Below the pieces are notes generated by a model, which was not told the DNA's origin, made no database searches, and saw nothing but the letters and a program-made list of their open reading frames with translations. Positions 24,453 to 27,422 of a stretch of DNA of 39,084 bases are shown here, in pieces. The position numbers and the translations under genes were made by a program. The stretch covers positions 1-39,084 of the forward strand of contig JAJDUG010000042.1 of assembly GCA_022826755.1 (NCBI GenBank), in the 5' to 3' direction. Within the stretch, counting starts at the first letter, position 1. Each line of letters opens with the position of its first letter. The DNA is from Acidobacteriota bacterium (GTDB lineage: Bacteria; Acidobacteriota; Terriglobia; Versatilivoradales; Versatilivoraceae).

Positions 24453-24713
24453 TTACTTCTGGTACCACTCGGCGTTGATCTCCAGGTACTCGGCCCACTG
24501 TTCGGGAAGGTCGTCTTCGGCGAAAATCGCCTCCACCGGACAGGCCGGGACGCAGGCGTTGCAATCGATACACTCGTCCGGATCGATGTAAAGCTGCTGC
24601 GCACCCTCAAACTCATCCTCGTCGGTCTTGGGGTGAATGCAGTCCACCGGACAGACGTCCACACAAGCTGTATCCTTGGTTCCGATGCAGGGCTCGGCAA
24701 TCACGTAAGCCAT
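24453..24713 (-). CDS. Seven-iron type ferredoxin, copy 1
   Basis: This 86-residue electron carrier has cysteines at 9, 17, 21, 25, 48, 51, 54 and 58. By analogy with seven-iron ferredoxins, Cys9, 17 and 58 bind a 3Fe-4S cluster and Cys21, 48, 51 and 54 bind a 4Fe-4S cluster. The second cysteine of the usual first CxxC is missing (CIGTKDTAC), as in the CIGTKD branch of the family. The start ATG 24713 has a strong AAGGAGG. It is the downstream member of a tandem pair that differs at only 13 of 86 positions. The redox partner is unknown. Confidence 0.92.
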   Translation of the reverse strand: MAYVIAEPCIGTKDTACVDVCPVDCIHPKTDEDEFEGAQQLYIDPDECIDCNACVPACPVEAIFAEDDLPEQWAEYLEINAEWYQK

Positions 24714-24803: not shown

Positions 24804-25064
24804 TCACTTCTGGTACCAGTTGGCGTTGATCTCCAAATACTCGCTCCACTGGTCCGGAAGGTCCTCTTCGGCGAAAATGGCTTCCACCGGACAGGCGGGA
24901 ACACAGGCCCCGCAGTCGATGCATTCGTCCGGATCGATATAGAGCTGCTCGGCCTCGTCGAAGCCATCCTCGTCGGATTTGGGATGAATGCAGTCCACCG
25001 GACAGACATCCACACAGGCGGTGTCCTTGGTTCCGATGCAGGGCTCGGTGATGATGTAGGTCAT
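24804..25064 (-). CDS. Seven-iron type ferredoxin, copy 2
   Basis: This copy has 86 residues with the same cysteine positions as copy 1 (9, 17, 21, 25, 48, 51, 54, 58) and the same C-terminal tail ending in WYQK. The two differ mainly in acidic surface residues, so they may have split partners or expression while keeping the clusters. The start ATG 25064 has GAGGAG seven bases upstream. It is transcribed first; a 90-base spacer separates the two genes, and they probably share the promoter at 25146-25174. Confidence 0.92.
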   Translation of the reverse strand: MTYIITEPCIGTKDTACVDVCPVDCIHPKSDEDGFDEAEQLYIDPDECIDCGACVPACPVEAIFAEEDLPDQWSEYLEINANWYQK

Positions 25065-25381
25065 GCAAAACTCCTCAAAACAAATGATGCCTTCAGGAAC
25101 ATTTCAGCAAACCGCTCTTCCGGCCCCGGGCAGCTACTGTCTTAAGGTATCCGCCAGGAAAGCACTCCTGTCAACCAAAAATTAGGCGCCAGGCGGGAAG
25201 GGCGATTTCCTGCAGCCGGCAACACCGGCAAACAGCAGAAAAATAGTAACATGGGAGGCAATCCCAATCAATCTCATCTTGGGGGTCCGACAAGGATTTT
25301 GCTTCCCCTGTCACATCCGCGTCAACTGCTGATTCCGATCATCGGAGACAGCAGAGGAACGACCATTCACCCTTCGATGTC
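25065..25381. other. Intergenic region and junction before the truncated membrane gene
   Basis: No complete gene is supported. The left part would be the promoter region of the ferredoxin pair. In the frame of the downstream membrane-nuclease gene the sequence is open from 25250. Family-like residues (FDVVPGLFLGVP) begin only near 25370, and what precedes them is polar and unlike the family's N-terminal membrane segment. I infer a recombination or deletion junction near 25360. Confidence 0.5.
25146..25174 (-). promoter_or_regulatory. Possible promoter of the ferredoxin pair
   Basis: On the minus strand a perfect TTGACA (25169-25174) is followed after 17 bases by GATACC (25146-25151), a weak -10. 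The start of the first ferredoxin gene is about 80 bases downstream. The exact -35 and spacing make it plausible; the poor -10 keeps it uncertain. Confidence 0.35.
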
Positions 25382-27265
25382 GTGCCGGGACTGTTTCTCG
25401 GCGTTCCCGGCGATGAGACGTTTGCGCTGCTGCCGGGGCACGAGCTCGTCAAGCAGGGCCAAGGGAACCTGGCGATTCGCCTTTCGGTTGCGGGCAGCGC
25501 CGCCGGTCTCATCATCGGCGTGGCCACCATTGTCGCCCTGCTGGCGTTCGGCAACGCGATCGGCGCCATGGAGGATATCATCGGTCCCTGGATGTTCTGG
25601 ATCCTGCTGACTGTCTCGGTGCTGCTGATCGCCACCGATTCACCCCGCGGCTGGTCGCTGGCGGTCTTCCTGTCCAGCGGGCTGCTCGGGCTGATGGTTT
25701 TCGGAACGCCGCTTGTCGCCGGCGGACTGGACGCACCGATCAATACCCTGTTTCCGGCCTTGGCCGAACTGTTCGGCATGGCGGGCCTGCTGTTCGCCAT
25801 CGCGACTACCGGCCCGCTTGGGAAGCGTCCACCGCCTGCCGAGTCTCCCGATCCGGACATCGCCGCCGTTGCCGGGCCCAGCCTCCGGGGCGGGTTCGCC
25901 GGCCTGGTGGTTGGCCTGCTGCCCGGACTCGGCGCCGCTAATGCCGCCACCTTGCTGCTACTGCTGGAACGGTGGTTCGGGCGGCGCGTGAGTCGTAACC
26001 ATCAGCGCCGCGCCTTTCTGGTAACCACGTCATCGCTCAATACGGCAGAGGCGTTGTTCGCGATCGCGGCGCTGTACCTGATAGGCCGGAGTCGCAGCGG
26101 CGCCTCCATCGCAGTGGAGCAGATCCTGGGCGGCATTGTCGTGCAGACCGACCTGCTCCTGATTGCGTTCTTCATGTTTCTCGGCGGCGTGATCGCGGCG
26201 GCCTTGCTGTGGATGACGGGAAGGTCGGTTGCCTCATGGATCAGCGCGGTTGACGAGATCGGCCTCAACTGGGGCGTGGTTGCCTTTCTGTCCGCGATTA
26301 CGCTGCTGTTGCTGGGTCTTGGCGGTCTGGTGATACTGGTATGCGCGACCGCCGTCGGGCTGGTGCCCCTGCTGTTCAACGTACGCCGGGCGCAATTGAT
26401 GGGCTTCTTCCTGGTCCCTACCATTCTCTTCTATTCCGGCCGGCAGGGGCACATCGTCGACTGGCTGTTGCTGCAACAGCGAACCGCGCCCTTGCTGCCT
26501 TCGGTCACACTCTCCGACATCGCACTGGCAGTGCTGGCGGCGGCTGCCGTGGCCCTGGCGGCCTATTACCTGGCACGCAGGATCGTGGCCGTGATTCGGA
26601 AGCGCGACTGGACGGCATGCGAGATCTCGAAGCCGGGCAAGCTGGTGGGCTACGCCACCGGCGGTGCGGCGGCGGTGATCCTGCTGATTGCGCTCTTCGG
26701 TCGGGCCTATCCGGACGACGAGATCGCGGCGGATCGGATCCCGGATCCCACGGAATGGGCGGAGGGACGCATAGCCCGAGTGATTGACGGCGACACGGCC
26801 GACATCGCCAGTGGGTGCCGCCGGTTCCGTGTACGGTTCAGCGGCGTGGACGCGCCGGAACTGGGCAGCGCTGCCGGCGAGCGCGCTCGCGCATGGGCGC
26901 GATCGACCTTCGAGAATCGGGCCGTCAGTTGGAGAGCGGTCGGCGTAGACGTCTACGGCCGCTTCCTGGGAGTGCTCCAACTCCCGGACGGCACCTCAGT
27001 CAACCAGGAAATAATTCGCCAGGGTTACGCTCGGCCCTACGTCGCACCGTCGCGGGCGGGTCGAGCCCGGTCCCGAAGCGTGGCTGAACGCCCTGCCCCG
27101 CCCGGGCCCGAGCCGACTGCTGAACCGCTTCCATGGGACGATAACGGCAATGGCCGCATTTCCTGCGCCGAGGCACGCTCGCACGGCATCGCCCCGGTAC
27201 GGCGCGGCCATCCCGCCTACGGCTACATGAGGGACGGCGACGGCGACGGGATCGTCTGCGAGTAG
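25382..27265 (+). CDS. TctA-like membrane domain fused to thermonuclease and excalibur domains (5'-truncated?)
   Basis: The first 440 or so residues are about ten membrane helices with the signatures of the archaeal-type TctA (tricarboxylate transporter permease) family: GVPGDETFALLPGHELVKQG, GLLPGLGAANAAT, SLNTAEALFAIAALYLIGRSRSGA and FNVRRAQLMGFFLVPTILF. A staphylococcal-nuclease domain follows at about 460-565, with the catalytic trio intact (Arg485, Glu493, Arg527) and the IDGDT motif. The C-terminus (about 588-627) is an excalibur calcium-binding motif, with Cys595, Cys626 and DGDGDG. The only start, GTG 25382, falls inside a conserved segment, has no ribosome binding site and leaves out roughly the first membrane part of the family. 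It is therefore either a broken gene or a new chimera. Base use is CpG-rich, hinting at transfer. Confidence 0.75.
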   Translation: MPGLFLGVPGDETFALLPGHELVKQGQGNLAIRLSVAGSAAGLIIGVATIVALLAFGNAIGAMEDIIGPWMFWILLTVSVLLIATDSPRGWSLAVFLSSGLLGLMVFGTPLVAGGLDAPINTLFPALAELFGMAGLLFAIATTGPLGKRPPPAESPDPDIAAVAGPSLRGGFAGLVVGLLPGLGAANAATLLLLLERWFGRRVSRNHQRRAFLVTTSSLNTAEALFAIAALYLIGRSRSGASIAVEQILGGIVVQTDLLLIAFFMFLGGVIAAALLWMTGRSVASWISAVDEIGLNWGVVAFLSAITLLLLGLGGLVILVCATAVGLVPLLFNVRRAQLMGFFLVPTILFYSGRQGHIVDWLLLQQRTAPLLPSVTLSDIALAVLAAAAVALAAYYLARRIVAVIRKRDWTACEISKPGKLVGYATGGAAAVILLIALFGRAYPDDEIAADRIPDPTEWAEGRIARVIDGDTADIASGCRRFRVRFSGVDAPELGSAAGERARAWARSTFENRAVSWRAVGVDVYGRFLGVLQLPDGTSVNQEIIRQGYARPYVAPSRAGRARSRSVAERPAPPGPEPTAEPLPWDDNGNGRISCAEARSHGIAPVRRGHPAYGYMRDGDGDGIVCE

Positions 27266-27422
27266 ACCCATGGCCAGGCTGGCGCAGCTTCGTCCGCCGA
27301 AGGGTTTCTGAAGGCTCCGAGAAGTCGACGGCGCCTGCCCGGAAGGAAATGGTCCTGAGAGGACAACGAGGGAAATCGAGGAATGGGAACGGCACCCCGT
27401 GCGCCCTGGTCGGCGCCTCGGT

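What the first reader, a model, noticed from the sequence alone, without database searches (positions are those of the whole stretch)
25382..27265. Membrane transporter-like domain fused to an intact thermonuclease and excalibur domain
An archaeal-type TctA-like membrane region is joined in one frame to a staphylococcal-nuclease domain with all catalytic residues and a calcium-binding excalibur motif. A membrane-bound nuclease on the outer face could process incoming DNA or act against invading DNA. I do not know of this fusion.
Basis: partly seen in the sequence, partly recalled or inferred. Interest (0 to 1): 0.7.

Follow-up and report, generated by a model that had tools for sequence, protein, structure and literature searches.

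The report
Truncated bacterial DNA-uptake transporter–nuclease gene
The gene is a broken copy, missing its first 61 codons, of a rare bacterial protein that joins an archaeal-type membrane transporter to a DNA-cutting enzyme; intact copies elsewhere sit beside a DNA-binding-fold gene and carry the same three parts that a methane-producing archaeon needs to take up DNA, so the family may be a second DNA-import machine in bacteria.

Summary
The fusion is real. One open frame joins an archaeal-type TctA domain, an SNase domain with all catalytic residues and an Excalibur motif. It is not a misassembly: two other Acidobacteriota carry it end to end (77% and 71% identity), and two gammaproteobacteria carry TctA–SNase without Excalibur. 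The window copy, however, is a remnant. It sits in a 2.1-kb insertion (25300–27421) absent from five same-genus genomes with this region, and homology starts at codon 62 of the intact 699-aa protein. The lost part holds the family's most conserved motif (PGIHVN) and the upstream gene.

Intact copies form a two-gene operon: a one-helix OB-fold protein, overlapping TctA–SNase. Archaea have the same OB→TctA order. In Methanococcus maripaludis, OB protein, TctA-like protein and a lipoprotein thermonuclease are each essential for natural transformation (Fonseca 2023, PMC10133366). The fusion therefore links the thermonuclease to the candidate archaeal DNA transporter. Topology puts the nuclease outside. 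I propose an archaeal-derived DNA importer, analogous to ComEC (OB + channel + nuclease), that is dead as a transporter in this window. Function in bacteria is inferred, not shown.

The parts
25300..27421 (.). Genome-specific insertion between the ferredoxin gene and queF that holds the fusion gene
   Evidence: Same-genus genomes G002 and G004 have window 25298/25299 joined directly to 27422; G001, G003, G006 have only 110-125 bp there. No target-site duplication or terminal repeat was found.
25372..25372 (+). 5' break of the gene: first base with homology to the intact fusion (codon 62 of the 699-aa relative)
   Evidence: blastn against L003, L015 and L004 starts at window 25372 in all three.
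25382..27265 (+). 5'-truncated TctA-SNase-Excalibur gene (627 codons; GTG is the first start codon left in frame)
   Evidence: ORF list; 77% identical to the full-length 699-aa L003 protein.
25385..26464 (+). Archaeal-type TctA membrane domain without its first helices and the PGIHVN motif
   Evidence: PF01970 profile 59-422 of 423; clade with bacterial and archaeal TctA, apart from classical TctA.
26504..26710 (+). Two extra transmembrane helices with an Arg/Lys-rich loop between them; they put the C-terminal part outside
   Evidence: Homologous to helices 442-470 and 475-503 of the intact model, with positive-inside charge pattern.
26765..27049 (+). SNase (thermonuclease) domain without its C-terminal helix
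   Evidence: PF00565 profile 1-81 of 107; the intact relative's SNase model matches staphylococcal nuclease with Z about 13.
26783..26965 (+). SNase catalytic residues: IDGDT 26783-26797, Arg in RFRVRFSG 26822-26845, DAPE 26849-26860, YGR 26954-26962
   Evidence: Alignment to solved thermonucleases and to other fused SNases.
27050..27127 (+). Pro/Arg-rich linker in place of the SNase C-terminal helix
   Evidence: Alignment A1.
27128..27262 (+). Excalibur calcium-binding motif (DGDGDGIVCE at 27233-27262)
   Evidence: PF05901 E 6.3e-11.

Best explanation
The intact family is a DNA-import module of archaeal type that has spread sparsely among bacteria. A single-pass OB-fold protein binds DNA outside the inner membrane. 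The SNase domain, tethered outside through two extra helices and (in Acidobacteriota) followed by an Excalibur motif, nicks or trims it. The archaeal-type TctA domain passes the DNA, probably one strand, into the cell. This would be functionally parallel to ComEC, which also combines an OB fold, a membrane channel and a nuclease, but without sequence relationship. The copy in this window is a remnant: a 2.1-kb insertion carrying the gene from codon 62 on, without the OB gene and without the first conserved transport motif, so it cannot work as that importer. Shown here: fusion, operon, domain content, phylogeny, empty site, truncation. Inferred: outer location of the nuclease (charge pattern, secreted paralogue), DNA as substrate (from genetics of archaeal relatives), direction and strandedness of transport.
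For: Domains. Intact relatives with an overlapping upstream OB gene. OB genes of bacteria and archaea are related (hhalign probability 96.5%, E 8.9e-10), and among 1205 neighbourhood genes the archaeal OB profile hits only genes beside TctA, including every bacterial one. In 72,556 plasmids the acidobacterial OB query finds two records, the same two that encode archaeal-type TctA, close upstream of it. One of these also has an SNase two genes downstream of TctA. Tree: bacterial members form one clade (95/86), TctA-SNase fusions 100/100, all on the archaeal side and apart from classical TctA. Topology; a secreted SNase-Excalibur paralogue lies 2.8 kb from the intact fusion in G258. Purifying selection on the intact pair: dN/dS 0.24 overall, 0.17 in SNase. 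Archaeal genetics: MMJJ_13020 (OB, one helix), MMJJ_13030 (TctA-like) and MMJJ_16440 (lipoprotein thermonuclease) are each essential for transformation, and the TctA homologue also in Methanoculleus thermophilus (PMC10133366). ComEC parallel: PMC12455585. Truncation and empty site.
Against: No bacterial member has been tested. All but one of the fusion-bearing genomes searched also have ComEC, so the module is not their only candidate DNA channel. The exception is an apparent 1.8-Mb MAG in which absence may be incompleteness. Apart from the SNase and NERD genes, no competence gene was recognised among the neighbours scanned. The TctA model resembles small-solute carriers (yellow-stripe/OPT Z 10.8; INDY and TRAP near 6), not a known DNA channel. 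Only 8 of 25 archaeal genomes with TctA have a Pfam SNase, so a nuclease is not universal. The sequences of the tested Methanococcus proteins themselves were not at hand.
Confidence: 0.6

Rival explanations
1. The module feeds on DNA: the outer SNase cuts environmental DNA and the TctA-like carrier imports nucleotides or short pieces as a phosphate, nitrogen or carbon source.
For: The TctA model resembles small-solute carriers. In one cyanobacterial plasmid the linked SNase is fused to a phosphonate-type binding domain. Most carriers also have ComEC.
Against: Deleting the OB or TctA gene abolishes transformation in Methanococcus (PMC10133366), so the archaeal relatives act on DNA that stays long enough to carry genes. 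Nucleotide import would not need an OB-fold protein in the same operon.
Confidence: 0.22
2. The TctA-SNase protein is a membrane-bound defence nuclease that destroys incoming phage or plasmid DNA.
For: Outer-face nuclease; patchy distribution, as for defence genes.
Against: The only PADLOC hit on the TctA-SNase proteins is a generic SNase profile; no defence genes were recognised next to it; a transporter with conserved transport motifs is not needed for a tethered nuclease.
Confidence: 0.05
3. The window's truncated protein is a working reduced form: a membrane-anchored Ca2+-dependent SNase that kept the TctA remainder only as an anchor.
For: 627 codons without stop or frameshift; catalytic residues kept; the SNase part shows no excess of amino-acid changes on the window branch (5 N / 11 S against 9 / 10).
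Against: No start codon upstream of GTG 25382 in frame; no sigma-70-type promoter-like site on its strand. The TctA part shows more amino-acid changes on the window branch (42 N / 46 S against 26 / 53, p 0.06). The copy may simply be young.
Confidence: 0.15
4. Assembly error or chance read-through joined unrelated genes.
For: It is a contig of an 81-contig assembly; the gene is absent from the same-genus genomes searched.
Against: The identical domain order is found end to end in other genomes at 71-77% identity. Both insertion edges are continuous with sequence conserved in the genus.
Confidence: 0.02

Closest known systems
OB-fold + TctA-like genes MMJJ_13020-13030 and thermonuclease MMJJ_16440 of Methanococcus maripaludis (Fonseca et al. 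2023, PMC10133366)
   Same: Same three kinds of part; OB protein with one helix encoded next to archaeal-type TctA; thermonuclease on the outer face.
   Different: There the thermonuclease is a separate lipoprotein gene elsewhere in the genome; in Acidobacteriota and gammaproteobacteria it is fused to TctA. Bacterial function untested. The window copy is truncated and has no OB gene.
ComEC (PF03772), bacterial DNA channel
   Same: Combines an OB fold, a membrane channel and a nuclease (PMC12455585).
   Different: Different channel family and different nuclease (beta-lactamase-like against SNase). No ComEC-family match in the fusion. ComEC is present separately in most of these genomes.
Classical TctA of tripartite tricarboxylate transporters
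   Same: Pfam family PF01970.
   Different: Separate clade (100/100); the intact fusion scores about 155 bits against 370-530 for classical copies in the same genomes; OB gene instead of TctB/TctC as partner.
Secreted SNase-Excalibur nuclease (e.g. L177:3692-4372 in G258)
   Same: Same SNase and Excalibur pairing, 46% identical.
   Different: Secreted and soluble, with a complete SNase domain; no transporter.

Membership tests
Archaeal-type TctA (PF01970) | Match above the curated cut-off and place in the archaeal-side clade, not the classical one | tested here: met
   101.2 bits against 28.9 for the window, 154.8 for the intact relative; tree.
Archaeal-type TctA (PF01970) | N-terminal transport motif G-x-x-x-G-L-V-P-G-I-H-V-N | tested here: not met
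   Nearly invariant in 40 members but absent from the window copy, which starts at codon 62. Present in the intact relatives.
Archaeal OB-TctA transformation module | One-helix OB-fold gene directly upstream of TctA | tested here: not met
   Not met in the window and not elsewhere in its genome. Met in all intact bacterial relatives with upstream sequence and in several archaea.
Archaeal OB-TctA transformation module | Needed for natural transformation | not testable with these tools
   Shown only for two methanogens (PMC10133366).
SNase / thermonuclease (PF00565) | Catalytic Asp, Arg, Asp, Glu, Arg residues | tested here: met
   Alignments.
SNase / thermonuclease (PF00565) | Complete domain including the last helix | tested here: not met
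   Profile 1-81 of 107 in the window, 1-75 in L003; complete in the gammaproteobacterial fusions.
SNase / thermonuclease (PF00565) | Ca2+-dependent nuclease activity | not testable with these tools
   Needs a bench assay.
Excalibur (PF05901) | DxDxDGxxCE motif over the curated cut-off | tested here: met
   42.9 bits against 22.
Tripartite tricarboxylate transporter (TctABC) | Groups with classical TctA | tested here: not met
   Separated by a 100/100 branch.
Tripartite tricarboxylate transporter (TctABC) | TctB and TctC partners nearby | tested here: not met
   None among the neighbours scanned of the window copy and of the intact copies.
ComEC | PF03772 competence channel domain | tested here: not met
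   No such hit in the fusion proteins.

The most novel reading that the evidence does not exclude
Some Acidobacteriota, gammaproteobacteria and cyanobacteria hold a second, ComEC-independent DNA-import machine of archaeal descent (OB protein + TctA channel + SNase). The TctA-SNase fusion shows that the thermonuclease and the TctA-like protein of archaeal transformation work as one unit at the outer face of the cytoplasmic membrane.
Probability: 0.5. Interest if true: 0.85.

Novelty: new variant of a known kind. Interest (0 to 1): 0.66.

Why it matters
The DNA transporter of naturally competent archaea is unknown; TctA was proposed in 2023 from genetics alone. A bacterial gene fusion that joins TctA to a thermonuclease, in an operon with the OB protein, ties all three genetic hits into one physical unit and offers bacterial proteins for biochemistry. 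If right, bacteria have a second kind of DNA importer with the same division of labour as ComEC, reached independently.

Tried and rejected
Misassembly at about 26700: rejected. Missing 5' part elsewhere in the genome: none found. Mobile-element ends around the insertion: no target-site duplication or inverted ends. Viral origin: no relatives in viral contigs or phage records. Solved TctA structure by sequence: none. Fold search with the full model was filled by SNase, so TctA was folded alone; best match yellow-stripe transporter, Z 10.8, rmsd 5.4 over 278 residues, no DNA channel listed. Class-wide search in Gammaproteobacteria: only 1 of 321 genomes has the fusion, the others hit by SNase alone. 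Order-wide searches: 2 of 11 and 1 of 162. SNase beside TctA in archaea: none in the loci held. A call with 'of' = a locus failed. Literature: no paper found on a TctA-SNase fusion. NCBIfam: only low-scoring nuclease hits.

Full report
What is in the window. The frame 25382–27265 (+) encodes 627 aa with three Pfam domains above cut-off: TctA (profile positions 59–422 of 423), SNase (1–81 of 107) and Excalibur. The catalytic residues of staphylococcal nuclease are all there; the last SNase helix is not.

The fusion is real and conserved. A full-length homologue of 699 aa (77% identical over the shared part) is present in genome G021, which is the Acidobacteria MAG p16x34bins.10 (L003 = L044), and a 700-aa one (71% to the G021 protein) in G258, of another class of the phylum. 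A third (L004/L045) is cut by the contig end. Two gammaproteobacteria (L046 Halieaceae, L047 SP107) have TctA–SNase with a complete SNase and no Excalibur. So the domain junction is not an assembly error. The fusion is rare: about 4 of roughly 450 genomes of the phylum in the first two searches, 1 of 321 gammaproteobacteria, 1 of 162 in the order of G258 and 2 of 11 in the order of G021.

The window copy is a remnant. Relative to same-genus genomes, window 25300–27421 is an insertion: G002 and G004 have the two flanks joined directly, and G001, G003 and G006 have only 110–125 bp in between. Homology to the intact gene starts at 25372, codon 62. The missing part includes the nearly invariant GLVPGIHVN motif. 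The partner OB gene is missing from the whole genome, and no other TctA of this or the classical kind is there. No stop or frameshift follows, so the loss may be recent; the TctA part shows a weak excess of amino-acid changes on the window branch (p 0.06).

The intact operon. In L003, L004 and L015 the TctA–SNase(–Excalibur) gene overlaps an upstream gene for a 239-aa protein with one N-terminal helix and an OB-fold domain. L046 and L047 have the same order. Two cyanobacterial plasmids have a two-OB-domain protein close upstream of archaeal-type TctA; on one of them a NERD nuclease gene and a binding-protein–SNase fusion follow. Across all 72,556 plasmids the acidobacterial OB protein finds only those two records.

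The archaeal link. Archaeal relatives are stand-alone TctA proteins of about 400 aa. Several have a one-helix OB protein just upstream. Bacterial and archaeal OB profiles match (96.5%, E 8.9e-10), and among 1205 neighbourhood genes the archaeal profile picks only genes beside TctA. The six archaeal profile members match by construction; the bacterial and two further archaeal genes do not. The tree puts all bacterial members in one clade on the archaeal side, with the SNase fusions at 100/100, and classical TctA apart. Whether bacteria got the genes from archaea or the reverse is not settled by this tree; archaeal breadth favours archaea to bacteria.

Function from genetics. In Methanococcus maripaludis, deletions of MMJJ_13020 (OB fold, one helix), MMJJ_13030 (TctA-like, 11 helices) and MMJJ_16440 (thermonuclease with lipoprotein signal) each abolish natural transformation; the TctA homologue is also essential in Methanoculleus thermophilus. 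The authors suggest TctA is the missing DNA transporter and that the thermonuclease may process DNA (PMC10133366). I did not have those sequences; the identification rests on domain content and gene order. Methanocaldococcus jannaschii, of the same order, rings for both Pfam families.

Topology and mechanism. The AlphaFold model of the intact TctA part is good (pLDDT 84, pTM 0.82). Charges between the two extra helices are strongly positive and those after the last helix acidic, which places SNase and Excalibur outside. A secreted SNase–Excalibur paralogue near the G258 operon fits this. The proposed division of labour (OB binds, nuclease trims, channel imports) is that of ComEC (PMC12455585), by analogy only. 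The fold search gives small-solute carriers as nearest solved structures, which keeps nucleotide scavenging alive as a rival.

Verdict. An unusual family, with a broken copy in this window. Its value lies in the intact relatives, which join the three archaeal transformation parts into one operon.

Noticed in passing
window 24453-24713 and 24804-25064 (-): Two tandem, closely similar ferredoxin genes; the tandem is conserved in same-genus genomes.
   Followed up: partly
L177:3692-4372 (-), genome G258: Secreted SNase-Excalibur paralogue with a complete SNase domain, 2.8 kb from the intact TctA-SNase gene.
   Followed up: partly
L124:3571-11550, Cylindrospermopsis plasmid: Gene run kinase-GUN4, OB fold, TctA, NERD nuclease, phosphonate-binding-protein fused to SNase, all on one strand.
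   Followed up: partly
L178:2550-3590, genome G098: Secreted protein that looks like an HNH-type nuclease followed by two Excalibur motifs nearly identical to the one in the fusion; domain not checked against Pfam.
   Followed up: no
L068:6627-7799 and L074:1352-2668: Archaeal OB-type proteins of about 400 aa with apparently several OB repeats, upstream of archaeal-type TctA.
   Followed up: no
L047:2992-3570: A second, single-helix membrane-anchored SNase lies downstream of the TctA-SNase gene in the gammaproteobacterium SP107, in which no ComEC was found.
   Followed up: partly
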